From an uncultured Alteromonadales bacterium (GTDB lineage Bacteria > Pseudomonadota > Gammaproteobacteria > Pseudomonadales > Cellvibrionaceae): a stretch of DNA of 64,000 nucleotides. Below are positions 7,410 to 22,880 of the stretch, in pieces. The number at the start of each line of letters is the position of its first letter. Positions within the stretch are counted from its first letter, which is position 1. The DNA lies in the NCBI GenBank assembly GCA_937864365.1, contig CALMJT010000216.1, positions 62,001-126,000 of the forward strand, in the 5' to 3' direction. A program made the position numbers and the translations under genes. The notes under the pieces were generated by a model. That model searched no databases. It had not been told where the DNA came from and saw only the letters and a program-made list of their open reading frames with translations.

Positions 7410-7419
7410 TTGCTGCTGT

Positions 7420-7449
7420 GAAGACACAGATGATTTTATCTGTGTCTTC
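7420..7449. terminator. bidirectional hairpin between cusA and the mer run
   Basis: Perfect 12-bp arms (GAAGACACAGAT and ATCTGTGTCTTC) enclose a 6-base loop GATTTT, between the convergent cusA and the last gene of the minus-strand metal cluster. There is no strong T-run on either side, so termination may be imperfect or Rho-aided. Confidence 0.65.
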
Positions 7450-7676
7450 TAACCCTTTGCTTTCGAACAGCAAGCTTTATCTTGTTGTATTGGAGGACAT
7501 GGAACAGTTCCAAAGGAACAAAATACACAGCAGTCTTCTGGCTTAGGCCGCAGCACGGTTTGGCAGCTTTCACACTGATAAAACCATTGGCAGGCATCAG
7601 TTGGCATTGTTTCCTGTTTTTCATGTCCGCACTCTGGGCAAGTAAGTACAGATTCTAATACGACAGCCTTACTCAT
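7449..7676 (-). CDS. GDCCVxC-domain small metal-resistance protein
   Basis: This 75-residue protein has two zinc-ribbon-like Cys pairs (CPEC near 14-17, CESC near 35-38) and a C-terminal EDCCVFCSFGTVPCPPIQ block. The latter matches the GDCCVxC-domain family, small (seleno)proteins known near mercury and arsenic resistance genes. Here the first residue of the motif is Glu and all thiol positions are Cys, so it is a non-selenium version. It overlaps the merP stop by 8 bases and is the last gene of the mer unit. Function is not established; a thiol-based mercury or redox role is inferred from the neighbours. Confidence 0.75.
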   Translation of the reverse strand: MSKAVVLESVLTCPECGHEKQETMPTDACQWFYQCESCQTVLRPKPEDCCVFCSFGTVPCPPIQQDKACCSKAKG

Positions 7677-7959
7677 TCGTGTCGCTCAACCCTAACTTCG
7701 AAGGGTAACCTGCGTTGGTAGTGGCTTCTATCAATGAGGCAACTTCCGTTTTTTCATCATCAAAAATCACAATTGCCAACTTGGTTTTATAGCTCACATC
7801 TGCAGATATAACACCATCTACCCTTTTAAGCGCCTTTTTGACCGTAATTGGACAGGTCGCACAATTCATCGTCGGTACACTCAAAGTGACTTGTTGCTCC
7901 CCAGCAAACGCGAAACTGGTATACAGGAAACAGAGTATCAATAGCATTGCTCTTTTCAT
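7669..7959 (-). CDS. merP: MerP periplasmic mercury-binding protein
   Basis: A 96-residue periplasmic protein with a signal peptide (MKRAMLLILCFLYTSFAFA) and one HMA domain. The HMA loop reads PTMNCATCPITV, the GMTCxxC-type Hg(II) site. MerP binds Hg(II) in the periplasm and hands it to MerT. The start at 7959 is chosen because GAGGTAA lies 6 bases upstream; an ATG six codons earlier lacks this. It follows merT by 10 bases and overlaps the next small gene. Confidence 0.88.
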   Translation of the reverse strand: MKRAMLLILCFLYTSFAFAGEQQVTLSVPTMNCATCPITVKKALKRVDGVISADVSYKTKLAIVIFDDEKTEVASLIEATTNAGYPSKLGLSDTNE

Positions 7960-7969
7960 GACTTTACCT

Positions 7970-8323
7970 CTATGCAAAAAATAATATCCAATACGGGCTG
8001 AAAATTAAGATTGCTGCTACTAGCACTGCAACACAGTACAGCAGCTTACGGTTTCGCTGCACCGTGGGGTCTGCGCAGGCTTCTCCTGTTATACAGGAAT
8101 CTCGACCTGTCAGTTCAGGCTTAAATATTCGCCATCCACTCCACCCGAACACAGCAATGACAACGGCAATAAAGAGTGGCCGGTAGGGCTCAAGCTCGGT
8201 CAGATTGGCTATCCAGGCGCCACTGATGCCAACACTCAAAAGTATGAGGGGGCCAGCGCAACAAAGGCTCGCTCCAATAGCGGCAACAATACCAGCAATA
8301 AGTGACCATGATGTTTTTGGCAC
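7970..8323 (-). CDS. merT: MerT mercuric ion transporter
   Basis: An inner-membrane protein of about 117 residues with three hydrophobic segments. The first carries the vicinal pair SLCCAGPL expected in MerT; the loop after TM2 has a second pair (DSCITGEACADP). LEPYRPLFIAV is also typical. MerT takes Hg(II) from MerP into the cytoplasm. I choose the GTG at 8323: GAGGTG lies just upstream, and the ATG at 8374 would sit inside the promoter/operator at 8363-8387. Without a reductase nearby, imported mercury would need one encoded elsewhere. Confidence 0.85.
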   Translation of the reverse strand: MPKTSWSLIAGIVAAIGASLCCAGPLILLSVGISGAWIANLTELEPYRPLFIAVVIAVFGWSGWRIFKPELTGRDSCITGEACADPTVQRNRKLLYCVAVLVAAILIFSPYWILFFA

Positions 8324-8362
8324 AGTACACCTCAAGAAAAGCGAAAGATAGCTGAAGTATAA

Positions 8363-8387
8363 ACTCCGTACCAAGGTACGGAGTCAA
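8363..8387 (-). promoter_or_regulatory. mer operator/promoter
   Basis: A perfect 22-bp palindrome (10-bp arms, ACTCCGTACC and its complement, two central bases) spans 8363-8384. On the minus strand it overlaps a -35 TTGACT (8387-8382), with TATACT or TTATAC 19-20 bases on as -10. This over-long spacer with a dyad in it is the MerR activation architecture, and the GTAC cores match mer operators. It drives merT-merP and lies just after the merR stop. Confidence 0.85.
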
Positions 8388-8396
8388 GGCTAAGTA

Positions 8397-8786
8397 TCAC
8401 TTCGGTTGTAGCGAATTGATGATTGGACAGTGAGCTTGATTTTCATTCTCGTTGCATTGGGCCAGCAAAGCTTTGAGTGCGTTTTCTAATCGCCTCAAGT
8501 CCTTCATCTTTGCTTGGACAGCCTCGAGTTTATTTTCAGCAAGTTCTTGTACTTCACTGCATGGGGAATCCTCAAGGCTGAGCAAGCGTGACACTTCGTC
8601 CAGTGTAAAACCAAGCTCTTGTGCGCGCTTGATAAAATGGATTCGGTCTACCGTTTCATCAGGGTAATGCCGGTAACCATCCTTCGGTTTCGGAGGCTGT
8701 TCGATTAAAGATTTTCGCTCATAGAAGCGAATGGTTTCTACATTTACGTTAAGCTCTTTAGCTACGCGGCTGATGGTTCTTTTCAT
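8397..8786 (-). CDS. merR: MerR mercury-responsive regulator
   Basis: A 129-residue MerR-family activator-repressor. The winged HTH is N-terminal (SRVAKELNVNVETIRFYERK), followed by a dimerisation helix. Cysteines at 76, 111 and 120 correspond to the three Hg(II) ligands of classical MerR, which favours mercury over other metals. It is co-directional with merTP, unlike the divergent merR of many Gram-negative mer operons, with the operator between them. It lies 24 bases after the GDT1-like gene, so it may also be read through from the czc operon. Confidence 0.88.
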   Translation of the reverse strand: MKRTISRVAKELNVNVETIRFYERKSLIEQPPKPKDGYRHYPDETVDRIHFIKRAQELGFTLDEVSRLLSLEDSPCSEVQELAENKLEAVQAKMKDLRRLENALKALLAQCNENENQAHCPIINSLQPK

Positions 8787-8810
8787 GTCTTTTGTTTCGA
8801 TCAGCGTTAG

Positions 8811-9086
8811 TTATGCATTGTATAAAGTAAAAATCCCGATCCCGACAAACCCAACTCCAGCGATATAATGAAGATACTTTTCGTTTATATACTCGGATAT
8901 TAAACTTCCTGCCAAAACGCCGATTGCAGATGCTACGATAAGTGCCGCAGAAGTAGCGAGGAATACAGTATATTTACTGACTTCTTTATCTGCTGCAAAA
9001 AGCATGGTTGCTAACTGAGTTTTGTCGCCCAGCTCCGCAATAAATACTGAGGCAAAAATTGTTACAAAAATCTTCCAGTCCACCAT
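8811..9086 (-). CDS. half-size GDT1/TMEM165 family membrane protein
   Basis: About 91 residues with three membrane segments and one copy of the family signature E-L-G-D-K-T (FIAELGDKTQLATML). The usual UPF0016/GDT1 protein is about 190 residues with two such repeats and exports Mn(II) or Ca(II). A one-repeat protein would have to form dimers. Start ATG 9086 has AGGT upstream; a TTG five codons earlier is less likely. It lies between the methyltransferase gene and merR in the long minus-strand metal run. A metal-export role is inferred from the family. Confidence 0.75.
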   Translation of the reverse strand: MVDWKIFVTIFASVFIAELGDKTQLATMLFAADKEVSKYTVFLATSAALIVASAIGVLAGSLISEYINEKYLHYIAGVGFVGIGIFTLYNA

Positions 9087-9122
9087 TTTACCTGTTGTCA
9101 AAAAGTGTATTTAATTTTTCGT

Positions 9123-9725
9123 CTACAGCCAGCGCCTAACCTGCTGGCAATACTCACGATATTCCTGTTTGTGTTGCCGTGTTAGATAATCTTCCTCCAT
9201 CGCAACTTGTATTTGAATCAATGCGATATTAAGAACCAAAATAGCGAATGTGATCGAATTAGGTAACACCAATAAATATCCCAAAGACATAAAAATCACA
9301 CCAACAAATATTGGGTTTCTTGAATATTTAAATAACCCTCTTTGTACAAATTCCGTTTTTTGATCGTGATCAATACCTATCCGCCAAGAGGCGCCCATTT
9401 GTGATTGAGCAGTTACCACCCAAACTAGAGCAACCAACATTATTCCCGTGCCTGAATATTGAATCAGAGCATAAGTAAGAAGTTTGATGGGGCCCAGCAA
9501 TAGATACACATTTGGAAAAAGCGCAAAAACAACAAACACCAAAATTGATACCAAGGGCAAGCACTTGAAATACACACCTGTGATCGCTTCAGGTCCCGTT
9601 TTCTGATTCAGCTTAAAGGCGTTAATGCCAGTGCGCTCTGCGACAGAATAATTTCGCCAAATAACGGCAACACCGAAAAACAGAACAAAATAAATTAGCA
9701 AAAAATTGTTAATCAATTGATTCAT
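9123..9725 (-). CDS. ICMT/PEMT-like membrane methyltransferase
   Basis: A 200-residue polytopic protein with about five hydrophobic segments. The C-terminal part carries the signature of the isoprenylcysteine/phospholipid methyltransferase fold: GLFKYSRNPIFVGVIFMSLG (the RNP motif binding SAM) and EEDYLTRQHKQEYREYCQQV. Genes of this kind are frequently found inside czc/heavy-metal clusters, but their substrate is unknown. It follows czcA by 35 bases and is probably co-transcribed with it. Confidence 0.75.
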   Translation of the reverse strand: MNQLINNFLLIYFVLFFGVAVIWRNYSVAERTGINAFKLNQKTGPEAITGVYFKCLPLVSILVFVVFALFPNVYLLLGPIKLLTYALIQYSGTGIMLVALVWVVTAQSQMGASWRIGIDHDQKTEFVQRGLFKYSRNPIFVGVIFMSLGYLLVLPNSITFAILVLNIALIQIQVAMEEDYLTRQHKQEYREYCQQVRRWL

Positions 9726-9760
9726 ATTGTTTGCCCCTCCCAGCTAAGAGGGGCTCCTCC

Positions 9761-12886
<3,126 letters not shown>

Positions 12887-13912
12887 TTAGTGTTCGTGTT
12901 CAGCTTCGGATTTTTCGATATCGGCTTTAATCAGGTAACTGTTTTGACTGACATAATCGCTGTCCATCTCAAGCCCCTCAACGACCTCATAAAAATGGTC
13001 GTCACTGCGGCCTAATACCAACGGCGTAAACCGATATACATCGCCTTGTTTCACAAACACGCCTTGGCGGCCACCCAATGTTTGTACGGCATTTTTCTCT
13101 ACGGCCAAAGCCACTGAAAAGCGACCCACTTCAATACGGGCTTCTGTCATCAAACCGGGCGGCAGGGATTGCTTATCATTGGCCAACTTGACCCGTGCGA
13201 TTTGATACGGTGCACCTATCGACGGCAGAATATGATCCACGGTGGACGCCACACTTCCGGTACTGGTTAATACATGGGCGGATTGTCCTTCACTGACCGA
13301 CGACCGTTGCGCGGGATAGACACGCAGTTCAGCCCATACCGTGTCAAAGTTGGCAATAGAAAATAAAATTTGGTCCTGGGTCACTTCGCCGGTATTGGCA
13401 TGGCGCTGGACAACACGACCCGTAATGGGAGAACGGATGGTGTAGGTTTTCAGGCTTTCGTTGGACTCAATTTCAGCCAATACATCGCCGGTTTTCACGC
13501 GATCACCCAGGGTGACCTTGACTGCTTTGACCAAGCCTTCAAAACGTGCCCGTACATGGCTCAGTTGTTCCGGCGCTAAAACAATGGAACCAAATACTGT
13601 TATCGTTTGGTGAAGCTCCTGTGGTCCGGATACTGAAGTGACGATACCCACCTGACTCGCCATTTTATCTTCAATGCGGCTGCTGGTTTCTTCTCCGTGC
13701 TCATGCTCATGCTCATGCTCATGCTCATCGTGATCATGTCCGTCTTCGTCGTGGTCGACAAGATCTGAATGTTCGTCATGATCACCTTCTTCATGATGAG
13801 GGGCATGTTGTTCGGACGCTTCATGCTCGTGGTCATAATCGTTTGCGGAAAACGCGGGTGTGTTCGAGAGAAAAACCACACTCGAAATAACCAATAAGTA
13901 ATAATTCTTCAT
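12887..13912 (-). CDS. czcB: CzcB-like periplasmic adaptor with His-rich N-terminus
   Basis: A membrane-fusion protein of about 341 residues. I start at ATG 13912 (signal peptide MKNYYLLVISSVVFLSNTPA, GGAG 9 bases upstream), not at 13990, which would overlap czcC. After the signal peptide comes about 60 residues of His, Glu and Asp, partly encoded by a hexanucleotide repeat (13699-13728), a likely metal-binding tail. Then the lipoyl-like, hairpin and beta-barrel domains of CzcB follow (GDRVKTGDVLAEIES, RSPITGRVVQRH). It joins CzcA in the inner membrane to CzcC in the outer membrane. Confidence 0.87.
   Translation of the reverse strand: MKNYYLLVISSVVFLSNTPAFSANDYDHEHEASEQHAPHHEEGDHDEHSDLVDHDEDGHDHDEHEHEHEHEHGEETSSRIEDKMASQVGIVTSVSGPQELHQTITVFGSIVLAPEQLSHVRARFEGLVKAVKVTLGDRVKTGDVLAEIESNESLKTYTIRSPITGRVVQRHANTGEVTQDQILFSIANFDTVWAELRVYPAQRSSVSEGQSAHVLTSTGSVASTVDHILPSIGAPYQIARVKLANDKQSLPPGLMTEARIEVGRFSVALAVEKNAVQTLGGRQGVFVKQGDVYRFTPLVLGRSDDHFYEVVEGLEMDSDYVSQNSYLIKADIEKSEAEHEH
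13699..13728. repeat. 5 x GCTCAT hexanucleotide tandem repeat in czcB
   Basis: Five perfect copies of GCTCAT lie in frame and encode alternating His-Glu on the minus strand. Because the unit is two codons, copy-number change by slippage would lengthen or shorten the metal-binding tail of CzcB without breaking the frame. Confidence 0.9.
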
Positions 13913-13955
13913 CGATATAAACTCCGGAGGCCAGACCTGGTCCGGCCAACAAAAA

Positions 13956-15227
13956 TTAAGGGTTAAGGGCTTCGCCGGTGAGCTGTTCAATCAGAGCCTG
14001 GCTAATTAGCGCTGTGGTGGCGGCATCAATAAGCGACTGTTTACTGGCAAGCAATTCTTCCTGGGCGGCGATGAGATCAAGATAGCGATAACGCCCGTTG
14101 TCAAAACCTTCGTTGGTGAGCTTGAGCGCTTTTTCCAACGCGGGGATGGCGACATTTTGGGTAAGATTGGCAGCCGCGATACTTTGTTTTCTGAGCGACC
14201 ATGCTTCAAAAAGTCGTGCGTGCAACACCAGGAGCAAATCCTGTTGGGCGTAATCCACGGCATTGCGATTGGATAACGCGGCTTTGACGTCGCCACTGCT
14301 ACGTTTATCGGCGAACAAGGGGAAGGAGATATCGGCAGTGAAGGCAGAATCCCCGGTTTCTTCAAAACGTCTAATGCCTGCGCGCCAGCTTAAGTCGCTG
14401 CGGCCACCGGCGCGAGCCAGAGTGACTTCGGCATCTCGAATACGGGCTTCACTGGCGAGCACTTGAAGGGCCGGTGAGCTTTGAACACGAGTGTACAGCT
14501 GATCGAAATCTTGGGTGGGGCCGAAGTCAAACAGACTGCCTGTTAGTGATTGAAAGCCGGGTATTGTTTCACCCCAAAATCGTGCGATTAATACTTTCTG
14601 ACGTTCAAGCTGCGCTTGAAGTGCCGCCAAACGAATTTCAGCACGTGTGAGTGCTGCCCGAGCCCGCATCACTTCCGCTTCAGCCGTAGCCCCACGAGCG
14701 GAGCGTGCTTTGATGGTTTTAAGAATGGATTGGGACAATTCCAGCGACTCTTCTGCCAGTTGAAGGTTTGCCTGAGTCGCTAAACCTTCGATATACACTC
14801 CGGTGACCTTGCCGAGCGTATCCAGAGTCACTGCTTGTTGTTCCCATTCCGCCTGATTGAGTCGGGCATCTGCGTAACGCATGCGTGCCTGGCGCTTGCC
14901 TCCAAGCTCGATCACAGAAGAGAGCGCAAGAGTCGTTTCGGCGGCATCAAAGCCTTCATTGGTTCCCGAGCCAGCAAAGTTTTCGACCTCCAGCTCAAGT
15001 GCTAGCGCCGGGCGCAAGGCACTGGTTTGCCTTTGGGCACTCAACGCTTCTGCGGTGAAGCGGTATTGGTACAGCTGAGGGTTTTGTGCGAGCGTCGAAG
15101 CCAACGCTTTTTTTAACGTGAGTGAGGACTCGACGTTTTCTGCAAGCGCTGATGGCGCCGTGCTGCATAGTAGAAACGCAAGCCACAGCCAGGTGCATTT
15201 ACACCTGAAAAATAGGGTATTTCGCAT
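13956..15227 (-). CDS. czcC: CzcC-like outer-membrane efflux protein
   Basis: A TolC/OEP-family channel of about 423 residues. The signal peptide ends near ALAENVESS, then two long Ala/Gln/Leu-rich helical repeats follow, with GFDNGRYRYLDLIAAQEELL near the C-terminus typical of CzcC. Start ATG 15227 has AGGA upstream; the ATG at 15242 does not. It lies 66 bases after the CzcI-like gene and 43 before czcB. It is the outer-membrane exit for CzcBA. Only modest similarity to the CusC-type gene at 1299 is visible, so the two pumps were not made by a recent duplication. Confidence 0.87.
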   Translation of the reverse strand: MRNTLFFRCKCTWLWLAFLLCSTAPSALAENVESSLTLKKALASTLAQNPQLYQYRFTAEALSAQRQTSALRPALALELEVENFAGSGTNEGFDAAETTLALSSVIELGGKRQARMRYADARLNQAEWEQQAVTLDTLGKVTGVYIEGLATQANLQLAEESLELSQSILKTIKARSARGATAEAEVMRARAALTRAEIRLAALQAQLERQKVLIARFWGETIPGFQSLTGSLFDFGPTQDFDQLYTRVQSSPALQVLASEARIRDAEVTLARAGGRSDLSWRAGIRRFEETGDSAFTADISFPLFADKRSSGDVKAALSNRNAVDYAQQDLLLVLHARLFEAWSLRKQSIAAANLTQNVAIPALEKALKLTNEGFDNGRYRYLDLIAAQEELLASKQSLIDAATTALISQALIEQLTGEALNP

Positions 15228-15293
15228 GAAAAAATCCTGCATTAAGTCGTGTTTCCGCGCGTGCGGGTGTTACTGCATAGAACTTAAAGGGAC

Positions 15294-15659
15294 TTAGGCT
15301 TTGGGAGGGCGCAGGAAGGTTTCGTAGGTTTCGGGAAACGTACTTTCAGCGTAATCGGAGACCGGAGAAGACAACTTGGCTACATGAACATACTCGATGG
15401 AAATCAGGATTGCGGGACAAAGATGGCCATGACAATGACAACAGTGATGGCAATCCCATTTTTCGGAAGCTGGTAATTCTGGGTTCAAGTTTTGATCGTC
15501 CAATGTGCTGGAAACGTGCTCGTCATCGTGTTGATGGACGTCATCAAATACAAGATGCTCAGCGCCGGACTGGTGCAACTGATGTGCATCGCCCATGGCT
15601 ACAGAAAACTGCAGCACAACCAGCGACAGCACAAAGTATGTCAGGACACGTTTCAGCAT
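15294..15659 (-). CDS. CzcI-like secreted His/Cys-rich protein
   Basis: A 121-residue exported protein. Signal peptide at residues 1-25 (LTYFVLSLVVLQFSVAMG), then a His-rich stretch (DAHQLHQSGAEH, HQHDDEH) and a dense ligand cluster DCHHCCHCHGHLC near residue 70. This resembles CzcI-type small periplasmic proteins at the head of czcCBA operons, thought to modulate metal sensing; the family is loosely conserved. It lies between the CDF gene and czcC on the same strand. Role inferred. Confidence 0.6.
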   Translation of the reverse strand: MLKRVLTYFVLSLVVLQFSVAMGDAHQLHQSGAEHLVFDDVHQHDDEHVSSTLDDQNLNPELPASEKWDCHHCCHCHGHLCPAILISIEYVHVAKLSSPVSDYAESTFPETYETFLRPPKA

Positions 15660-15699
15660 TGAAGTCTATTTATCTATTTTCTGAGTCATGGCGATCACA

Positions 15700-16611
15700 C
15701 TACCTTAACATAAGAATACGTCGAGCGCCGTTTAACACCACAAGCCCAATAATAACACCAATGACCAGATCCGGAATTTGCGATCCCGTGAGCGCGACCA
15801 GACCTCCGGCAAGAATAACCCCCGCGTTGGCGAGCACGTCATTAGCCGAAAAAATCATACTGGCCCTCATATGAGTGCCATGATTTCGCACCTGGTAAAT
15901 CAACAGGAGACACGCGACGTTAGCCACTAATGCCAGACTGCCAACCCCCATCATAATCAGGGAGGCCGGTTCACTTCCCATAAAGGTGCGCCTGATCACT
16001 TCAATTAAAAGACCCATTGCCAGGGCGGCTTCGAGCCAGCCGGATAAATGCGCGGCTTTAAGCTTGGCTTGTGCCGCTTTGCCCACTGCATAGAGCGCTA
16101 CGATGTAGACCGCAGCATCGGCAAACATGTCCATTGAATCCGCTATCAGCCCCGCAGATTGGGCCACAACGCCCACAGCAAGCTCAAAGAAAAACATCAT
16201 GGCATTAATTCCGAGCAACCACTTCAGAACCCAGGCTTCTCGTGAATCGTTAAGCTTTGTCTCTTCTCGTATTTTCTTCGCACTTTCAACATCCACCTGT
16301 TCAAGCGATAAGCGACGTGCTCCGAGCCCCACGGATTTCATGGTGATTTCGATCAAGTTAGGCGAATCGGCGTGATAAACATGCACTTTCCGATTCGGGG
16401 TATCGAACTCGAAGGTGACTGATTCCCCAAAGCTTGCGAATGCTGTGCGGATGAGAGTCTCCTCAGAAGGGCAGTCCATCTGAGGCACTTCGAACGTGCT
16501 CATGGTATTCAGAGTTGTCGAAGCGCTATTGGATTTCGGGTTTGATGGAGAAAACGGTGCGCCCGCCTCATTGCTCTGGCAACCACAGCGTTGTGAGAAG
16601 TCAGATGTCAT
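15700..16611 (-). CDS. CDF cation transporter with N-terminal HMA-like domain
   Basis: This 303-residue protein has an N-terminal domain (about 38-105) resembling HMA but with a single Cys (PQMDCPSEE), then six TM segments of a cation diffusion facilitator. TM2 has GLIADSMDMFADAAVY, giving the Asp ligands; TM5 has FSANDVLAN. The usual cytoplasmic C-terminal domain is absent, so the protein ends after TM6. A CGC motif lies at the very N-terminus. It is the first gene behind the MerR-type operator at 16649-16669, so it heads the long metal operon. Likely exports Zn, Cd or Pb from the cytoplasm to be passed on by CzcCBA. Confidence 0.82.
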   Translation of the reverse strand: MTSDFSQRCGCQSNEAGAPFSPSNPKSNSASTTLNTMSTFEVPQMDCPSEETLIRTAFASFGESVTFEFDTPNRKVHVYHADSPNLIEITMKSVGLGARRLSLEQVDVESAKKIREETKLNDSREAWVLKWLLGINAMMFFFELAVGVVAQSAGLIADSMDMFADAAVYIVALYAVGKAAQAKLKAAHLSGWLEAALAMGLLIEVIRRTFMGSEPASLIMMGVGSLALVANVACLLLIYQVRNHGTHMRASMIFSANDVLANAGVILAGGLVALTGSQIPDLVIGVIIGLVVLNGARRILMLR

Positions 16612-16641
16612 AGAATAGCCCTTGAATTATCGAAGAAGGCA

Positions 16642-16672
16642 AGCGTACACTCTATAGTAACTATAGAGTCAA
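16642..16672 (-). promoter_or_regulatory. CadR/PbrR-type operator and promoter
   Basis: Perfect 10-bp arms (ACTCTATAGT and its complement around one central A) span 16649-16669. On the minus strand the -35 TTGACT (16672-16667) and -10 TACGCT (16647-16642) are 19 bases apart, the elongated spacer activated by MerR-family proteins. It points to the CDF gene; the regulator is divergent. Confidence 0.85.
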
Positions 16673-16684
16673 GGGGCGGCGCCA

Positions 16685-17089
16685 ATGAAAATTGGTGAAC
16701 TTGCAAAACGCAGTGGGTGTTCCATTCAAACCATCCGATATTATGAAAGGGAAGGGTTGTTGAGTTCTCCCACACGGAGTGGTGGCAACTTTCGCCTGTA
16801 CGACCATCACGCAGAAGAGCGCTTAATGTTCATAAAGCGTTGTCGTAGTCTTGATCTTTCTCTGTCCGAAGTGAGATATTTACTCACGCTCAGCCAAGCA
16901 CCCGGGTCCAGGTGTGGTAAGGTCAATGAGATGGTTGATCAGCATATTCAACAGGTCGAAGAAAGGATAGATGAACTTCAAAGCCTCCATCGCCAACTAC
17001 ACGACCTCCGGAACAACTGCTCGGAAAACCGAACCGTAGAGGATTGCGGCATCATCAGGAGTCTGGCGCAGAAAAAAGGTTTGAACTAA
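16685..17089 (+). CDS. cadR: CadR/PbrR-like MerR-family metal regulator
   Basis: A 134-residue MerR-family protein. N-terminal winged HTH (MKIGELAKRSGCSIQTIRYY), coiled dimerisation helix, and metal-site cysteines at 77, 112 and 121, the pattern of Cd(II)/Pb(II)-responsive CadR and PbrR. It lies 15 bases beyond the dyad at 16649-16669 and is divergent from the CDF gene, the usual arrangement. It probably distorts the long-spacer promoter when metal binds, switching on the CDF and czc genes. Zn(II) sensing (ZntR-like) is less likely but possible. Confidence 0.82.
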   Translation: MKIGELAKRSGCSIQTIRYYEREGLLSSPTRSGGNFRLYDHHAEERLMFIKRCRSLDLSLSEVRYLLTLSQAPGSRCGKVNEMVDQHIQQVEERIDELQSLHRQLHDLRNNCSENRTVEDCGIIRSLAQKKGLN

Positions 17090-17242
17090 TCGGTCGATCA
17101 TGCCTTTCGAATGTGTAACTCCAATTTTTCCATTATCGTTGGAGAAAGCAAATACTTCAGGGTCACTTAGTACAGCTGCGGGCCTCCCTCGGAACTTGCA
17201 AATGATTTTATTTCACGATCATATAAACCAAACGACCAGAGT

Positions 17243-17270
17243 GTTACACTGTTTATACATACAGTGTAAC
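17243..17270 (+). promoter_or_regulatory. LexA (SOS) box before the DUF5131-TcmP operon
   Basis: The core CTGTTTATACATACAG at 17249-17264 fits the enterobacterial LexA consensus CTGT-N8-ACAG with an A+T-rich centre. It sits in longer perfect 9-bp arms (GTTACACTG and CAGTGTAAC, 17243-17251 and 17262-17270). It overlaps a possible -10 (TATACA) and ends 14 bases before the start codon, so a bound repressor would block transcription. Confidence 0.7.
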
Positions 17271-17284
17271 GTGGAGGGTTAGCA

Positions 17285-18028
17285 ATGGCTACTAAAAGTA
17301 AAATTGAATGGACAGAACAAACCTGGAATCCAGTCACAGGCTGCACCAAGGTGTCACCGGGGTGTAAGTATTGTTACGCTGAAGTCATGAGTAAGCGTCT
17401 GCAAGCAATGAGTGTAAGTGGCTATGAGCGAGGGTTCTCGACTATATCCCTGATGAGAGAGCGACTTGACCAGCCTCTGCAGAGAAAAAAGCCCACAGTA
17501 TATTTCGTCAATTCAATGAGTGACTTATTTCATGAAGACGTGCCCTTCGACTATATAGATGAAGTGATGGCGGTTATTGACCAAGCCACTCAACATGCGT
17601 TTCAAATTTTGACTAAAAGAGCTGAACGCATGAGGGAGTATTTTGACACGAGGCGAGCACCAGATAATGCTTGGCTAGGCGTATCAGTTGAGGACAAACA
17701 ATACGGGAAACCGAGGATAGCTCAGCTACAGCGGATTAGAGCTAAGACCCGGTTTCTGTCAATCGAACCACTTTTGGAAGATGTTGGAAGAATTAGTCTT
17801 CGAGGTATTCACTGGGTTATAGTTGGCGGCGAGTCCGGGGGCAAAGCTAGGCCCATGGAGGAATCTTGGGTTCTCAAAATAAAATCACAATGCGAACGCG
17901 CTGGAACCAGTTTTTTCTTCAAGCAGTGGGGCGCCTGGGGTGAGGATGGGATCAAAAGATCAAAACAAGCAAACGGAAGAACCCTACAAGGCAAAACCTG
18001 GAATCAAATACCTGCTATAGCTATATAA
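17285..18028 (+). CDS. three-Cys-motif protein, DUF5131 (phage Gp37/Gp68) family
   Basis: A 247-residue protein of the DUF5131/Gp37-Gp68 family. The N-terminus starts IEWTEQTWNPVTGC and carries the three-Cys motif C20-x6-C27-x2-C30 (CKYCYAE), which resembles a radical-SAM iron-sulfur site. Further family landmarks are YFVNSMSDLFHEDV, FQILTKRAERM, WLGVSVED, FLSIEPLLEDVG and WVIVGGESGGKARPM. GGAGGG lies 7 bases before the ATG. It heads a tight operon with two TcmP genes and is preceded by a LexA box. Families of this kind occur in phages and mobile elements; the reaction is not known. Confidence 0.85.
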   Translation: MATKSKIEWTEQTWNPVTGCTKVSPGCKYCYAEVMSKRLQAMSVSGYERGFSTISLMRERLDQPLQRKKPTVYFVNSMSDLFHEDVPFDYIDEVMAVIDQATQHAFQILTKRAERMREYFDTRRAPDNAWLGVSVEDKQYGKPRIAQLQRIRAKTRFLSIEPLLEDVGRISLRGIHWVIVGGESGGKARPMEESWVLKIKSQCERAGTSFFFKQWGAWGEDGIKRSKQANGRTLQGKTWNQIPAIAI

Positions 18029-18055
18029 ATTCTAAAATAACAAAAGGGAAACAAC

Positions 18056-19327
18056 GTGCCCAAAAAGAAAAAGGAAAAATATACATGGGCTATCGGTAAG
18101 CAGTTACCTTATTTAGACGAACATAGCCAGGCGAAGCACCGTATTATTTCGGACTACATTCAGCGCTATGTTGAAGTGTACATGAGCAACACTTCGATTG
18201 AAGGTTTGAGACTATCAATTGTTGATGGTTTTTCTGGTGGTGGAAAGTACCGGGATATTTTAACCAATGAGACTATTGATGGTTCACCATTTGTCATTCT
18301 AAATGCAATTAAGGAAGTCGAGGAGCGCATTAATAAAAATCGCATTAAGCGACGCTCCATCGATGCTCACTACTTTTTTATTGATTATATCAAGCAACAT
18401 ACTGAATTTCTGAAACATGAAATTCAGCAGTCGGCCTTCAAAAAAGAGCTAGACGAAAACATATTCTTGCACACAGATATCTTTGCCCGCGCAGCACCCT
18501 CCGTAATTGACGCAATTCATAAAAGAAATAAAGCCCAGAGATGTCTCTTTATACTTGACCAGTATGCTTATAAAGATGTTCCTTTTAATACGGTACGTTA
18601 CATATTGGAAAAATTAAAAGGTAGTGAAGTAATTTTGACGTTTAACGTAAACGCTCTTATGAATTACTTTTCAGAATGCGATGCTAACCGAAAAGCATTG
18701 GAGAATATTCACCTTGATCAATACATAGATTGGAAGCGCATAGCTGCTCTGAAGGAAGCCGGAAAAGGCAGGGCGGCTGTTCAAGAGCAGCTTGCAAACG
18801 CAATTTATAGAGCATCAGGGGCAAAGCATATTACTCTTTTTTTTGTGACGCCCAAAAGCGGACTCACATACTGGCTTGTCCATCTATCTAAGGTCTACAG
18901 GGCACGCGATGTTATGATGTCACTACACTGGAAGCATTCAAACTCATCTTTTTCACATCACATGGCAGAGGGAATTTTTTCACTCGGGTATACCTCCACG
19001 GAAACACCCGGTCAGAGTAGTTTCGACTTGGTTACTGAATTTGATTTTAGTACCGATGCCGAAACGAGGTGTATTAGGCGTTTATCCGAAGATATACCGC
19101 GGCACATTTTCAATTTGAATGAACCAATCTCGCTCTCTTGTTTGGTTGATCAGATCGGTAGCTACACTCCTGCCGCCGAAAATCAGATACGACAAGCACT
19201 TACTAGCAGCCTAAAGAATAAAGAGCTAAAAATATTGAACTCATCGGGAAAATACCTTAACTCTGCTAATCAAGCAAAATCAGGAGACCTGATCTCTTAC
19301 AATCAAAAATCAATTTTTGTTCTTTAA
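18056..19327 (+). CDS. tcmP: three-Cys-motif partner protein TcmP (first copy)
   Basis: A 423-residue TcmP-family protein. N-terminal WAIGKQLPYLDEHSQAKHRI and then LSIVDGFSGGGKYRD match the family's AKH... and FAGPG-type motifs; the latter looks like a Rossmann/SAM-binding loop. A central LFILDQYAYKDVPF and a C-terminal winged-helix-like region follow. TcmP is known by its genomic pairing with three-Cys-motif proteins; its activity is unknown. Start is GTG with GGGA upstream, 27 bases after the DUF5131 gene. It is only distantly like the second TcmP, so it is not a fresh tandem duplicate. Confidence 0.8.
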   Translation: MPKKKKEKYTWAIGKQLPYLDEHSQAKHRIISDYIQRYVEVYMSNTSIEGLRLSIVDGFSGGGKYRDILTNETIDGSPFVILNAIKEVEERINKNRIKRRSIDAHYFFIDYIKQHTEFLKHEIQQSAFKKELDENIFLHTDIFARAAPSVIDAIHKRNKAQRCLFILDQYAYKDVPFNTVRYILEKLKGSEVILTFNVNALMNYFSECDANRKALENIHLDQYIDWKRIAALKEAGKGRAAVQEQLANAIYRASGAKHITLFFVTPKSGLTYWLVHLSKVYRARDVMMSLHWKHSNSSFSHHMAEGIFSLGYTSTETPGQSSFDLVTEFDFSTDAETRCIRRLSEDIPRHIFNLNEPISLSCLVDQIGSYTPAAENQIRQALTSSLKNKELKILNSSGKYLNSANQAKSGDLISYNQKSIFVL

Positions 19328-19339
19328 AAGGATGAAAAT

Positions 19340-20446
19340 ATGAAAGACGAAAGATTCTTTGATGAAACCCGGGAGCAGTCGTTGGTTAAAGCGACCATCG
19401 TAGAAAAATATTTTGGAGCTTGGTCGCAGATTATTACCGGGGCACAAAAGCGCTACCAGCAACATGTTCAGAAGATAGGTTATGTTGACTTATTTGCTGG
19501 CCCTGGCCGATACAAAGATGGCGTCATATCAACTCCTCTACGAGTTTTAAACACCGCATTACAGAATGAGCAACTGCATGATCGCCTCGTCACAATATTT
19601 AATGACAAAGACGAAAACCATGCAAGAACGTTGTCCGAAGCAATTGAAGATTTAGATCAAATCAAGCTGTTGAAGCACACTCCTCAGATCTGGAATGAAG
19701 AAGTAGGGGACAATATTGCACTCCAGTTCGAGAAGATGAGCGTCATACCTATACCCGCCTTCATCGACCCATGGGGGTACAAAGGGTTATCACTTAGGCT
19801 TGTAAATGCTTTTTTAAAAGATTGGGGCTGTGACTGCCTTTTTTTCTTTAACTACGCTCGAGTTAATGCGGGTCTTTCGAATCCAAAAGTTCGAAGTCAC
19901 ATGGATGCGTTGTTCGAATCGCATACACAAACTTTAATTGATCAAATTACAGGTTTGCCCCCCGATGAACGAGAATCACAGATTGTTGAAAGCATCGCAA
20001 ATGCGCTAAAAACCTACGGGCACCGTTATGTTTTGCCATTTTGTTTTAAAAATGAAAGTGGCAAGAGGACAACGCATCACCTCGTATTTGTGACAAAACA
20101 CTTTAAAGGGTATGAGGTGATGAAGGAAATCATGGCAAAAGAAAGTTCTAGCGACTGTCAGGGAGTAGCATCCTTTCAGTACATGCCTGCAGCAACCCTT
20201 TCACAAGGACTTCTTTTTGAGCTTAATCGGCCATTGGATTCACTGAAAGATCAGCTCTTGTTGGACTTTGCTGGCCAGTCATTAACGATGATAGATATTT
20301 ATCGTAAACACAGCATTGATAAGCCATTTCTAAATAAACATTATAAAACCGTATTAAAGGAAATGGAGGAAGAAGGTTTGATAATAACAAGTGGCAGGAA
20401 TTCGAAAAGAGGCTTTGCGGACAATATTTTGTGCGTATTCACGTGA
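19340..20446 (+). CDS. tcmP: three-Cys-motif partner protein TcmP (second copy)
   Basis: A 368-residue TcmP-family protein. KIGYVDLFAGPGRYKDG near residue 47-63 is the canonical family motif, followed by FIDPWGYKGLSLRLV and FFFNYARVNAGL. The last 70 residues form a predicted winged helix (SIDKPFLNKHYKTVLKEMEE, then EEGLIITSGRNSKRG). It starts 12 bases after the first TcmP with AAGGATG upstream, so all three genes form one operon. Having two divergent partners for one three-Cys protein is unusual as far as I know. Function unknown; methyltransferase-like fold and DNA binding are inferences. Confidence 0.82.
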   Translation: MKDERFFDETREQSLVKATIVEKYFGAWSQIITGAQKRYQQHVQKIGYVDLFAGPGRYKDGVISTPLRVLNTALQNEQLHDRLVTIFNDKDENHARTLSEAIEDLDQIKLLKHTPQIWNEEVGDNIALQFEKMSVIPIPAFIDPWGYKGLSLRLVNAFLKDWGCDCLFFFNYARVNAGLSNPKVRSHMDALFESHTQTLIDQITGLPPDERESQIVESIANALKTYGHRYVLPFCFKNESGKRTTHHLVFVTKHFKGYEVMKEIMAKESSSDCQGVASFQYMPAATLSQGLLFELNRPLDSLKDQLLLDFAGQSLTMIDIYRKHSIDKPFLNKHYKTVLKEMEEEGLIITSGRNSKRGFADNILCVFT

Positions 20447-20682
20447 GTTTAACTTACTGACACTACACTGACAGACAGATTGAAAACTATTTTTACCCCA
20501 ATCTGTTAGTTAGTTAGCTAAGCGTTCACGATCAACTCATTAAAAAATGGTCATATTTAATAGGGAAATTCTAAACAAAACCTCAAAATTCTCTATAGCA
20601 GAGGTACTTGCCTTGTCTAAATAAGAGTAAGTCTATTTGTATGTTGTTTGTTTTTATAGGATTGCCATTTAATATATTTACG

Positions 20683-21168
20683 TTACGAAAAGCTCTCGAG
20701 GGTTTTCCGTAACGCAAGCCAAATTAGTTGGGCGTCATCAAGCGCTCTATGTATCGTAAAATCATCCGTTTTTTCCAGCTTATTTTTAAAATCAAAATAA
20801 GATTCCAAGCGACATTCTGGAGTCTTAATAAGTTCCTTGATGTCCTGTATTTCAAATCGTTGATGTATGCCGTTATCTGAAAAAAGTATTTTGCACCAAA
20901 ATTCATCCCATTGGATGGAGTCGCAGTAGGCAGTTTGTCCAGATAAAAAATCGTTTAAAGTGTGAGCCACTTGCTTCGATTCCAGCCCATTCAATTTCAG
21001 TTGGGCTCGGGATATCCCATGAATTGCCTCAGCTTCACGAGACCAGTGTTGCCAGTAAGGCATTGGTTTAATTAGCGAGTGATAATTTATAAGCCCGTTT
21101 GTTATGCCAACCTTTATGGGGTAGCTACATTTGGACAGGCCGCTTGCTTCAAAATCTATAACCCACAT
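20683..21168 (-). CDS. DEDDh-family 3'-5' exonuclease
   Basis: A compact 161-residue nuclease of the DnaQ/RNase T fold. Motif I is VIDFEASG (D5, E7); AIHGIS is the usual second landmark; motif III is TIHRALDDA with H140 and D145, giving the DEDDh class. It would hydrolyse single-stranded DNA or RNA from the 3' end using two metal ions. It stands alone, convergent with the TcmP operon and divergent from the integrase. It is probably part of the mobile region; a defence or repair role is inference only. Confidence 0.8.
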   Translation of the reverse strand: MWVIDFEASGLSKCSYPIKVGITNGLINYHSLIKPMPYWQHWSREAEAIHGISRAQLKLNGLESKQVAHTLNDFLSGQTAYCDSIQWDEFWCKILFSDNGIHQRFEIQDIKELIKTPECRLESYFDFKNKLEKTDDFTIHRALDDAQLIWLALRKTLESFS

Positions 21169-21428
21169 ACTTCAGAATAAGATTCCGTTAAAGCTAGCCA
21201 GTATATACGTATAAACGTTATATGTAATCGCAGCTAATAACTTATTACTTCCGAAGACTAACTGAAAGCTTTAGCGCAAAAAACTGAAGACTTCAGGGAG
21301 TCGTCCAAACCGATAGGTGCTAGCATGACCATTAATTAACACCAATTTATTTCACATACGCTTCAGTATTCGACATAACATATCAAAGCGGCTAAACTAA
21401 GTTTATTCCAATAATATCGGTACTTCGT

Positions 21429-22676
21429 ATGGCCACAAACAATCCAAAGCCAGTCGCCTTATTTCCAGCGTTCTCAGAGCTAACGTCACTGAATTTCGGT
21501 GAATACAAGGACCTCAAGCAGTTTTTGGACTCCGGAGAAAGCTGGTGGCTGACTCATTGGAACTGGGGTCTAGAATTCCTCAGTTATATCGGCCGAAACA
21601 AATCCGAACACACATTCACACGATTCAGGAACGAAACCGAGCGATTCTTGTTGTGGGTTTTTCTGTTCAAAACCATGCCTATGGAGCAACTGCGCAAGGC
21701 TGATATTCTGGAATACGCTGACTTTTGTTGGCAGCCGCCAGTTTCTTGGATCTGCACGGCGAACCATGAAAAGTTTGTTTTCCATAGTGGGTATTACACG
21801 CAGAATAAGTTATGGGCACCATTCAAGCTACAGCTGCCTAAGGATGCGTCGGACGACCAGGTTCTCGATAAAAAGAAATACAAGCCATCTCAGCAAACAC
21901 TTGCTGCTATGTTCACGGCAGTGATTGCGTTTTACAAATATTTAATGAACGAAGAGCATTTATACGGTAACCCGGCTCAAATCGCCAAACCTGATTGCCG
22001 TCATTTCATAAAAGACGTGCAGGTCAAGGAAATTCGGCGTTTATCCGAGTCTCAATGGCAATACGTCTTTAATGTTGCACTTGAGCTTGCGAATCAAGAC
22101 AGAATTTACGAGCGCAGTCTGTTTGTCATAACTGCGCTGAAAACGCTGTTTTTACGCATTTCTGAATTGTCTGACCGCCCAAACTGGACGCCTGTGATGA
22201 GCCATTTTTGGCAGGATTCTGAGGGCAACTGGTGGCTAAAGATATTTGGCAAAGGTCGAAAACTTCGAGACATCACAGTCCCGAACAGCTTTATCGATTA
22301 TCTCAAAAGATACCGCCAATTTCGCGGCCTTAGCCCCCTACCGTCTTCAGGTGAAAACCATCCAATAGTCGAAAAAATTCGTGGACAAGGCGGGATGACA
22401 TCCAGGCAGCTTATTCGCATTGTCCAACAAGTTTTTGATTTGGCTTACGACAAAATGAAGGAAGCTGAAGGCGAAGACAATGCGCGTAAGCTGCGAGAAG
22501 CCTCTTCCCATTGGCTGAGACACACTGGTGCGAGTATGGAAATTGAACGTGGTCGCGCTCTGAAGGATCTGTCCGAAGATCTGGGGCATTCTAGTATGGC
22601 GACGACTGATACCGTCTATGTCCAAACAGAAAATCGTGTTCGTGCTGAAAGCGGGAAAAATAGGAAAGTGAATTAA
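21429..22676 (+). CDS. tyrosine recombinase/integrase
   Basis: A 415-residue site-specific recombinase of the phage-integrase family. The catalytic residues are visible: Arg in LFLRISEL (about 240), Lys in GKGRKLRD, HxxR in SSHWLRHTGAS (about 360), LGHSSMATT, and the Tyr nucleophile in TVYVQTE (about 397). An N-terminal SAM-like core-binding domain lies at about 30-190. Its stop is 218 bases from the 45-bp repeat at 22894-22938, so that repeat may be its attachment site. No excisionase gene is seen nearby. Confidence 0.85.
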   Translation: MATNNPKPVALFPAFSELTSLNFGEYKDLKQFLDSGESWWLTHWNWGLEFLSYIGRNKSEHTFTRFRNETERFLLWVFLFKTMPMEQLRKADILEYADFCWQPPVSWICTANHEKFVFHSGYYTQNKLWAPFKLQLPKDASDDQVLDKKKYKPSQQTLAAMFTAVIAFYKYLMNEEHLYGNPAQIAKPDCRHFIKDVQVKEIRRLSESQWQYVFNVALELANQDRIYERSLFVITALKTLFLRISELSDRPNWTPVMSHFWQDSEGNWWLKIFGKGRKLRDITVPNSFIDYLKRYRQFRGLSPLPSSGENHPIVEKIRGQGGMTSRQLIRIVQQVFDLAYDKMKEAEGEDNARKLREASSHWLRHTGASMEIERGRALKDLSEDLGHSSMATTDTVYVQTENRVRAESGKNRKVN

Positions 22677-22757
22677 TGACTTGTTGTTCTCAATCTCTGC
22701 AGTCTATTTGCTCTTATAACTGGCCACCTCGGGCGCTTAGCAAATTCTATTACTGTT

Positions 22758-22880
22758 TTACATGAGGATGAACTCATATCCGGTCGCCAGGCCTAATATT
22801 AAAACCATTCCAGTAATTCGAGTTTGAACATCATTTGCTAGCAAAATATGTAACAAAATCAATACGATGATGCCAGCCAT
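22758..22880 (-). CDS. possible 40-residue membrane peptide
   Basis: An ATG at 22880 opens a 40-codon frame of strongly hydrophobic character (MAGIIVLILLHILL, then GMVLILGLATGYEF), enough for two membrane segments. The frame can be extended upstream to a GTG next to the 45-bp repeat. No ribosome binding site is evident and I do not recognise a family. It may be the tail of a gene cut by the repeat. Low confidence. Confidence 0.3.
   Translation of the reverse strand: MAGIIVLILLHILLANDVQTRITGMVLILGLATGYEFILM

What the first reader, a model, noticed from the sequence alone, without database searches (positions are those of the whole stretch)
17243..20446. SOS-box-controlled operon: one three-Cys-motif protein with two divergent TcmP partners
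Seen: a core CTGT-N8-ACAG box (17249-17264) in a longer dyad, 20 bases before a DUF5131 gene, followed at 27 and 12 bases by two different TcmP-family genes. Known: three-Cys-motif and TcmP proteins co-occur and have no assigned activity; LexA boxes mark DNA-damage genes. Inferred: an inducible system fired by DNA damage or prophage induction, using a radical-SAM-like centre, an FAGPG Rossmann-like partner and winged-helix DNA binding. Two partners for one three-Cys protein could mean a hetero-oligomer. Sitting on a mobile region beside an exonuclease and integrase, a defence function is a fair hypothesis.
Basis: partly seen in the sequence, partly recalled or inferred. Interest (0 to 1): 0.82.

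Follow-up and report, generated by a model that had tools for sequence, protein, structure and literature searches.

The report
SOS-controlled DUF5131 and twin TcmP operon
A three-gene operon on mobile DNA appears to be switched on by DNA damage and encodes a predicted radical enzyme shaped like a DNA-repair lyase together with two different methyltransferase-shaped, DNA-binding partners; what it does to DNA or RNA is not yet known.

Summary
The box is more than chance: an exact CTGT-N8-ACAG lies within 150 nt upstream of DUF5131 or an adjacent TcmP in 18 of 162 homologous loci (window included), 17 of them 19-53 nt before the start codon; background is 0.003 per 150 nt. The nearest relative keeps the dyad through two compensatory changes. 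Against this, an unselected class sample has 0 of 26 before DUF5131 and 1 of 26 counting TcmP-first loci, so SOS control belongs to a subset.

New here: the predicted DUF5131 fold matches spore photoproduct lyase best (Z 13.9; viperin-like next, 11.7) and TcmP-B matches RlmJ best (Z 18.0; next outside that group 14.4). All 20 loci with two TcmPs pair a DQ-motif with a DP-motif protein, so the partners look complementary.

Best reading: a LexA-repressed, horizontally moving nucleic-acid-modifying complex, for repair or defence. PADLOC already lists the pair as a candidate (PDC-M30/M41); no activity is shown. It is a new, SOS-controlled, two-partner variant of a known but uncharacterised pair.

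The parts
17243..17270 (.). Extended dyad (10-bp perfect arms, 8-bp spacer) containing the LexA/SOS box core CTGTTTATACATACAG at 17249-17264
   Evidence: two compensatory changes in relative L003; exact boxes in 18 of 162 homologous loci, window included; rank 3 of 33 sites in the genome by a spacer matrix from homologues
17285..18028 (+). DUF5131 (Gp37/Gp68, 'three-Cys-motif') protein, 247 aa; predicted SPL-like radical-SAM-type barrel; C20, C27, C30 = CX6CX2C
   Evidence: PF07505 361.9 bits; TIGR04471 103.4 bits, below its cut-off of 355; three Cys invariant in 74 of 74; model pLDDT 92.2; top PDB matches are spore photoproduct lyase
18056..19327 (+). TcmP-A, 423 aa, GTG start; DQ-type motif IV (DQYA), C-terminal GMT-wHTH
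   Evidence: TIGR04474 241.4 bits; PF22560; member of a 34-protein DQ clade, support 0.94
19340..20446 (+). TcmP-B, 368 aa; DP-type motif IV (DPWG), RlmJ-like MTase fold plus C-terminal GMT-wHTH
   Evidence: TIGR04474 208.3 bits; PF22560; model pLDDT 85.7; RlmJ entries are the best PDB matches, Z 16.8-18.0
20683..21168 (-). DnaQ/DEDDh-like exonuclease gene, absent between cassette and integrase in relative L003; probably a later insertion, not part of the operon
21429..22676 (+). Tyrosine integrase that accompanies the cassette also in L003 (89.8% nucleotide identity over 21349-22811)
   Evidence: PF00589

Best explanation
A mobile operon repressed by the host's LexA and released by DNA damage. 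It encodes DUF5131, a radical-SAM-type enzyme whose closest solved fold is the DNA-repair enzyme spore photoproduct lyase, and two TcmP proteins with winged-helix tails; TcmP-B, and by family TcmP-A, has an RlmJ-like methyltransferase fold. Proposed action: TcmP-A (DQ type) and TcmP-B (DP type) bind nucleic acid, most likely damaged or foreign DNA, and present a base; DUF5131 does radical chemistry on that base. In effect this is an inducible base-modifying or lesion-processing complex, kept as a damage-response or defence cargo of mobile DNA. Shown by computation: box, its partial conservation and dyad, gene pairing, predicted folds (DUF5131 and TcmP-B), invariant residues, DP+DQ pairing, purifying selection. 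Inferred: LexA binding and induction, an Fe-S cluster, complex formation, the substrate, and the benefit. Likelihood: LexA control 0.85; radical-SAM-type enzyme acting with MTase-fold partners on nucleic acid 0.65; the full base-presentation model 0.35.
For: LexA control: exact CTGT-N8-ACAG in 10 of 77 non-redundant 150-nt upstream regions of DUF5131 (window included), against a shuffle mean of 0.08 (largest 2 in 300 shuffles). Counting upstream regions of DUF5131 and of adjacent TcmPs, without removing near-duplicates, 18 of 162 loci carry it, 17 at -19 to -53; the rate over all these loci, boxes included, is 0.0029 per 150 nt. By arrangement: D-T 4 of 37, convergent 10 of 53, T-D 3 of 17 (in front of TcmP), T-D-T 0 of 10, DUF5131 alone 1 of 45. 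L003 keeps the dyad by two compensatory changes. The genome has LexA with its DNA-binding domain, boxes before recA and before imuA followed by the start of an error-prone polymerase gene, and a one-mismatch box before lexA. Enzyme: the six Foldseek hits of DUF5131 with E <= 0.001 are all SPL entries; VIA Z 13.9 (rmsd 2.9, 194 aligned) against 11.7 for viperin-like. TcmP-B: RlmJ leads, Z 18.0 (rmsd 3.0, 215 aligned); the best chain outside the RlmJ/DUF519 group has 14.4. The TcmP family model also matches this genome's RlmJ (PF04378 206.8 bits) below its own cut-off, and the TcmP alignment against that protein gives hhalign E 1.6e-05, probability 78.8. Pairing: a TcmP lies within 4.5 kb of DUF5131 in 75 of 82 loci, and in 76 of 83 if L001, a short copy of the window locus, is counted. 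All 20 two-TcmP loci are DP+DQ. dN/dS against L003 is 0.07-0.08 for the three genes.
Against: No exact box in 144 of 162 loci. In an unselected class sample 0 of 26 full-length DUF5131 upstreams have one (the window's own gene is not among them), and 1 of 26 when TcmP-first and convergent loci are also scanned (L202; upstream DNA held was short in several). No experiment on induction, binding or activity. DUF5131 has CX6CX2C, not the CX3CX2C of SPL (recalled). TcmP motif IV is never DPPY (0 of 67), so ordinary N6-adenine methylation is doubtful. DQ-type TcmP also occurs as the only TcmP (18 loci), so a heteromer is not obligatory. In 37 of 80 viral-contig loci no TcmP was found near DUF5131, some of them ending close to it, and DNA methyltransferases are not clearly enriched beside those. 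TcmP-A was not modelled.
Confidence: 0.5

Rival explanations
1. Anti-phage defence system (PADLOC candidate PDC-M30/M41) with LexA as the trigger: phage attack or prophage induction damages DNA, LexA is cleaved, and the complex modifies or inactivates phage nucleic acid or stops the cell.
For: PADLOC PDC-M30B 2.8e-111, PDC-M41B 1.1e-109 and PDC-M30A hits for both TcmPs. Patchy: 31 of 369 class genomes, the window's included and some with fragments only. On plasmids (404 records), in viral contigs, in 161 phage records and, in Gordonia phages Angelique and Jablanski, with a TcmP between integrase and immunity repressor. PMC10855318 (passage read) reports PDC-M30 in 32 P. aeruginosa strains, 68.8% of them phage resistant. 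A TcmP gene (SMa2243) is tabulated next to hna in S. meliloti (PMC12445080, passage).
Against: No activity shown in any source read. Flanking genes were scanned against PADLOC without a control set, and the top listed families match 2-4 of 150 ORFs (25 of 289 families shown), so no enrichment can be claimed. LexA control fits repair equally well. Some phages carry DUF5131 in operons with exonuclease, RecT or RuvC-type genes.
Confidence: 0.35
2. Host or element DNA repair: DUF5131 directly reverses a DNA lesion in the manner of spore photoproduct lyase, guided to it by the TcmPs.
For: SPL is the closest fold. LexA boxes. An SPL homologue, splB, is itself predicted to be LexA-regulated in alpha- and beta-proteobacteria (PMC3323433, passages). 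In M. tuberculosis, Rv2735c is co-transcribed with recA-recX (PMC3062782, passages) and Rv2734-Rv2735c-recX-recA form one cluster of genes differentially expressed under mitomycin C (PMC5057432, passages); a three-Cys-motif-partner domain is reported for BCG_2748c (PMC7387457, passage), which I take, by recalled numbering only, to be the Rv2735c counterpart.
Against: Different cysteine spacing (SPL spacing recalled). The pair is patchy and mobile, unlike most core repair genes (general knowledge). The RlmJ-like partner is unexplained by simple lesion reversal.
Confidence: 0.25
3. RNA modification: TcmP (RlmJ/Trm1-like fold) and DUF5131 (also similar to RlmN) modify rRNA or tRNA during stress.
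For: RlmJ is an rRNA methyltransferase; Trm1 scores Z 14.4 and RlmN Z 11.0. DPYG/DPFG motif IV in 19 of 67 TcmPs recalls Trm1's DPFG (recalled).
Against: The winged-helix tails, SPL ahead of RlmN, and LexA control point to DNA.
Confidence: 0.15
4. The box is coincidental, or is an operator for a different regulator with a palindromic site.
For: 33 sites of the bare pattern occur in the genome, most with spacers unlike SOS boxes. The dyad arms extend beyond the core. Class-wide homologues nearly all lack it.
Against: Enrichment and fixed position in homologues of several lineages, AT-rich spacer like the box before imuA of this genome, compensatory dyad changes.
Confidence: 0.08
5. Viperin-like nucleotide chemistry: DUF5131 makes a modified nucleotide that blocks phage polymerases.
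For: Viperin-like entries are the second-best fold group, Z 11.7.
Against: SPL scores about 2 Z units higher; MTase-fold partners with winged helices do not fit small-molecule production.
Confidence: 0.06

Closest known systems
PADLOC candidate systems PDC-M30 and PDC-M41 (DUF5131-type B plus TcmP-type A)
   Same: Both kinds of protein match; same gene pairing
   Different: Here one DUF5131 with two TcmPs of complementary DP/DQ type, under a LexA box; defence is untested in what I read
Spore photoproduct lyase (SPL/SplB)
   Same: Closest solved fold of DUF5131 (Z 13.9); SplB is predicted SOS-regulated in some proteobacteria (PMC3323433)
   Different: CX6CX2C in place of CX3CX2C (latter recalled), 247 aa against about 340, accompanied by TcmP partners; about 14% identity over the aligned part
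RlmJ, 23S rRNA A2030 N6-methyltransferase
   Same: Closest solved fold of TcmP-B (Z 16.8-18.0); this genome's RlmJ is a sub-threshold match of the TcmP model; motif I and the motif IV Asp retained
   Different: No DPPY (0 of 67; motif recalled); extra C-terminal winged helix; partner of DUF5131
Rv2734-Rv2735c-recX-recA cluster of M. tuberculosis
   Same: Gene cluster differentially expressed under mitomycin C (PMC5057432); a three-Cys-motif-partner domain is annotated for BCG_2748c (PMC7387457)
   Different: Chromosomal, attached to recA. The gene correspondence is by recalled numbering and was not tested by sequence
Radical SAM mobile pair proteins A/B (TIGR04471/TIGR04470)
   Same: DUF5131 aligns to TIGR04471 (103.4 bits); by its name, paired genes on mobile elements
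   Different: Far below the cut-off of 355; the partner is TcmP, not a second radical SAM protein

Membership tests
LexA/SOS regulon | Palindromic CTGT-N8-ACAG operator at the promoter | tested here: met
   20 nt before the start codon. No consensus sigma-70 promoter was found on the plus strand there
LexA/SOS regulon | Operator conserved in orthologous operons | tested here: inconclusive
   Met in a subset: 18 of 162 loci against a background of 0.0029 per 150 nt. Class-wide sample: 0 of 26 before DUF5131, 1 of 26 counting TcmP-first and convergent loci
LexA/SOS regulon | Host has a LexA, with the same box type at known SOS genes | tested here: met
   TIGR00498 238.7 bits; boxes before recA and before imuA, NF033429 160.2 bits against a cut-off of 150; near-box before lexA
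LexA/SOS regulon | LexA binding and damage induction | not testable with these tools
   Needs gel shift and expression data
PADLOC PDC-M30 candidate defence system | Adjacent M30A-like and M30B-like proteins | tested here: met
   M30B 2.8e-111; M30A 9.1e-24 (TcmP-A) and 9.4e-27 (TcmP-B)
PADLOC PDC-M30 candidate defence system | Protects against phage | not testable with these tools
   Only a strain correlation was read (PMC10855318)
Radical SAM superfamily | Three conserved cysteines in a radical-SAM-type fold | tested here: met
   C20, C27, C30 in 74 of 74; model matches SPL, viperin, RlmN and lipoyl synthase. The cluster itself is not shown
Radical SAM superfamily | Canonical CX3CX2C spacing (recalled) | tested here: not met
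   CX6CX2C
Spore photoproduct lyase family | Recognisable as SPL by sequence | tested here: not met
   No SPL among PDB sequence hits up to E 10 or with the profile up to E 1, nor among Pfam or NCBIfam hits up to E 0.01; similarity only at fold level
N6-adenine methyltransferases (RlmJ/Dam type) | Motif IV (D/N/S)PP(Y/F/W) (recalled) | tested here: not met
   0 of 67; D-P/Q-x-G/A/S/N/C/D instead
SAM-dependent Rossmann methyltransferase fold | Rossmann MTase fold with glycine-rich motif I | tested here: met
   TcmP-B: RlmJ Z 18.0; D50 and G54 in 67 of 67 TcmPs. SAM binding and catalysis are not shown
TcmP family (TIGR04474) | Score over the curated cut-off | tested here: met
   241.4 and 208.3 against 53 bits

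The most novel reading that the evidence does not exclude
A new type of damage-inducible nucleic-acid-modifying machine: an SPL-like radical enzyme with non-standard cysteine spacing works on a base presented by a heteromer of two RlmJ-like, winged-helix proteins, one with a DQ and one with a DP catalytic-site motif. It is spread by phages, plasmids and integrases as a SOS-timed defence or repair cargo.
Probability: 0.33. Interest if true: 0.87.

Novelty: new variant of a known kind. Interest (0 to 1): 0.64.

Why it matters
DUF5131-TcmP occurs in bacteria, plasmids and phages and is listed as a candidate defence system, yet none of the paper listings and passages I saw assigns it a function (open-licence papers only, and the listings are capped). 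A LexA switch and two fold assignments (SPL-like, RlmJ-like) turn 'unknown function' into concrete tests: which lesion or base, in DNA or RNA, under DNA damage or phage attack. The DP+DQ rule predicts a heteromer that can be tested by pull-down.

Tried and rejected
Enrichment of other DNA methyltransferases beside TcmP-less phage DUF5131: suggested by Gordonia phage Bakery and prophage prophiT36-2a (C5-cytosine methylase, PF00145) and by viral loci L168 and L172 (by eye). The Pfam tallies gave DNA-methylase families in 4 of 52 adjacent ORFs (25 of 27 families shown) and 3 of 94 ORFs three to five genes away (25 of 42 families shown; 94 of 123 such ORFs scanned), so I do not claim it.

Sequence-level link to solved structures: TcmP-B and DUF5131 found nothing credible in PDB by sequence; only fold comparison helped. 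Rfam on 16600-21500: no hit at gathering threshold. A consensus sigma-70 promoter on the plus strand at the box was not found; the only nearby match is on the minus strand. Pfam gave nothing for the imuA and imuB candidates; NCBIfam names imuA but not the second gene.

One search read loci on the minus strand in the wrong orientation; I discarded it and repeated it. Rows dropped: one search used 77 of 82 upstreams after removing 5 near-identical ones, and L001, a short copy of the window locus, was left out. In one search four of 30 loci had partial DUF5131 and were dropped. In one search, TcmP pieces under 180 aa were left out of the pair count; two single-TcmP loci could not be typed. Frames under 250 aa were left out of the tree. 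In some searches, 150 of 189 flanking ORFs from 54 loci were scanned and 25 of 157 and 25 of 289 families were shown. In one search, TcmP-less viral loci over 62% identity were left out, and 3 of the remaining 30 (L174, L175, L195) had no usable DUF5131 frame. The 77 upstreams hold 7 best one-mismatch sites against 3.4 in shuffles, which I do not count as boxes.

Davis 2002 and the M. tuberculosis LexA regulon paper could not be read (not held), so the mycobacterial parallel rests on passages of other papers. None of the paper searches showed me a report of a LexA box before DUF5131 or TcmP; long listings were capped, and subscription journals and preprints are not covered.


Full report
Observation. 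DUF5131 is PF07505 at 361.9 bits. The two downstream proteins are TcmP (TIGR04474) at 241.4 and 208.3 bits, and both end in a GMT-like winged helix. By itself the core pattern proves nothing: two sites in the window with 0.66 expected, 33 sites in the genome against 244 for the pattern read backwards.

Is it a LexA box? I took 80 relatives of the DUF5131 protein from genome records, the window and a second copy in this genome. An exact CTGT-N8-ACAG lies within 150 nt upstream of DUF5131 in 10 of 77 non-redundant upstreams, the window among them; dinucleotide shuffles give a mean of 0.08 and at most 2. Adding 80 viral-contig loci and looking also upstream of any adjacent TcmP, 18 of 162 loci have the box (14 of 82 and 4 of 80), 17 of them 19 to 53 nt before the start codon. 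The rate over all those loci is 30 sites in 1.54 Mb, boxes included, or 0.0029 per 150 nt. In boxed loci where TcmP precedes DUF5131 (L011, L026, L063) the box is in front of TcmP; in the 10 boxed convergent loci it is in front of DUF5131 in 9 and of TcmP in one, at -75. Near-duplicates were not removed from the 162. The closest relative, L003, differs from the window on both sides of two dyad pairs and keeps them complementary, while the outermost pair is lost. I scored the genome's 33 sites with a spacer matrix from 12 distinct boxes of homologues (the window and L003 left out; one string, from L026, equals L003's). The window site comes third, behind a CTGTATATATATACAG site and the site before imuA; 0.15% of random spacers score as high. 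The genome has one LexA, a boxed recA, a boxed imuA (160.2 bits, cut-off 150) followed by an unnamed gene and the start of an error-prone polymerase gene, and a one-mismatch box before lexA.

Evidence against a general rule: of 369 genomes of the same class 31 hold a DUF5131 match. Of 26 full-length cases 0 have an exact box before DUF5131 (the window's own gene is not in that set), and scanning also in front of TcmP where it stands first or convergent adds one, L202 (upstream DNA held was short in several). So LexA control is a trait of a subset. In a tree of 128 TcmPs the group of TcmP-B has seven members (window, L003, L011, L012, L014, L022, L118; support 0.89), and six of their loci carry a box; window/L003 and L022/L118 look like close pairs, so this is fewer than six independent cases.

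What the proteins are. The AlphaFold model of DUF5131 (pLDDT 92.2) has spore photoproduct lyase as all six Foldseek matches with E <= 0.001 and at VIA Z 13.9, 194 residues at 2.9 A; viperin-like enzymes follow at 11.7 and RlmN at 11.0. Its three cysteines are invariant (74 of 74) but spaced CX6CX2C. The model of TcmP-B (pLDDT 85.7) has RlmJ on top, Z 16.8-18.0, with other methyltransferases, Trm1 among them, at 14.4 and below. Independently, the TcmP family model matches this genome's RlmJ (PF04378, 206.8 bits) below its own cut-off, and a profile comparison with that protein gives E 1.6e-05 with a probability of 78.8. Motif IV begins with an invariant Asp but is never DPPY (0 of 67). A shared fold does not show the reaction.

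Two partners. A TcmP lies within 4.5 kb of DUF5131 in 75 of 82 loci, downstream, upstream or convergent (76 of 83 with L001, a short copy of the window locus). Twenty loci have two TcmPs, and every one combines a DQ-type with a DP-type (19 clean, one with an extra fragment); single-TcmP loci of the genome and viral sets together are 75 DP, 18 DQ and 2 untyped. Of 37 DQ proteins in the tree 34 form one clade (support 0.94) that includes TcmP-A; the other three sit near TcmP-B. This argues that the second TcmP is a different part, not a spare copy; since 18 DQ proteins stand alone, pairing is not obligatory.

Setting. The cassette 17153-20561 is 91.8% identical to L003, and the integrase stretch 21349-22811 is 89.8% identical; in the window about 0.7 kb more lies between them, with the exonuclease gene. 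In L003 a KfrA-type gene precedes the operon, and the match begins inside its 3' end, so the window keeps a remnant of it beside a CadR/PbrR-type regulator and a cation-efflux gene. Plasmid pCAR1 and a P. aeruginosa plasmid have a divergent DNA-binding gene (KfrA_N in pCAR1), integrase, DUF5131 and TcmP in a row. DUF5131 occurs in 404 plasmid records and 161 phage records. dN/dS against L003 is 0.07-0.08 for all three genes, so they are maintained.

Literature. In the open library I saw no paper on the function of DUF5131 or TcmP. Passages seen: PDC-M30 in 32 P. aeruginosa strains, 68.8% resistant (PMC10855318); a TcmP gene tabulated with hna (PMC12445080); a TcmP entry in a table of prophage genes (PMC12429752); Rv2735c co-transcribed with recA-recX (PMC3062782); the Rv2734-Rv2735c-recX-recA cluster under mitomycin C (PMC5057432); a three-Cys-motif-partner domain in BCG_2748c, listed at -3.02 in that paper's table (PMC7387457); splB predicted under SOS control (PMC3323433). 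Passages of PMC9380542 show a LexA-bound radical SAM gene in Streptomyces, not identified as DUF5131. That BCG_2748c corresponds to Rv2735c is recalled numbering.

Verdict. LexA control is very likely. The most likely working is a damage-induced nucleic-acid-modifying complex of an SPL-like radical enzyme and two complementary RlmJ-like partners. Whether it repairs DNA or defends against phage is open; I lean slightly to defence because of mobility, patchiness and the PADLOC listing, but nothing here tests it.

Noticed in passing
L112 3641-4372 (own genome contig C84): A second DUF5131 (70% identical) in the same genome, beside genes that look phage-like by eye, with no TcmP nearby and no exact SOS box; it might share the window's TcmPs in trans.
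   Followed up: partly
L230 5818-10011 (pCAR1) and L231 5822-10086 (P. aeruginosa plasmid): DNA-binding gene (KfrA_N in pCAR1), site-specific integrase, DUF5131 and TcmP in a row on both conjugative plasmids; by recall this resembles the tnpT-tnpS resolution module of Tn4651-type transposons, which was not tested.
   Followed up: partly
window 20562-21348: About 0.7 kb carrying a DnaQ-like exonuclease gene lies between the cassette and its integrase, absent in relative L003.
   Followed up: yes
window 17153-17205: Apparent remnant of the 3' end of a KfrA-type gene shortly before the SOS box, next to a CadR/PbrR-type regulator gene.
   Followed up: partly
window 1299-16611: Two efflux clusters with outer-membrane efflux proteins (PF02321), RND-type pumps (by eye), a cation-efflux gene and a CadR/PbrR regulator: a metal-resistance region next to the cassette.
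   Followed up: no
L104 2114-2129 (own genome contig C204): A CTGTATATATATACAG site, the best-scoring of the genome's 33; a methyladenine glycosylase gene (PF03352, 235.3 bits) on the minus strand at 1210-1818 starts about 300 bases from it.
   Followed up: partly
L196 3421-5975 and L198 3305-5906 (Gordonia phage Bakery, prophage prophiT36-2a): DUF5131 next to a C5-cytosine DNA methylase (PF00145) in operons with exonuclease, RecT or RuvC-type genes; that methylase is not a TcmP.
   Followed up: partly
flanks of genome loci (150 of 189 ORFs from 54 loci): Peptidase S24 (LexA/CI-like) families match 4 and integrases 9 of 150 flanking ORFs scanned.
   Followed up: no
L202 (class genome G080): TcmP-first locus with CTGTATATAAGAACAG near the start of the TcmP frame: the one box of the class sample.
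   Followed up: no
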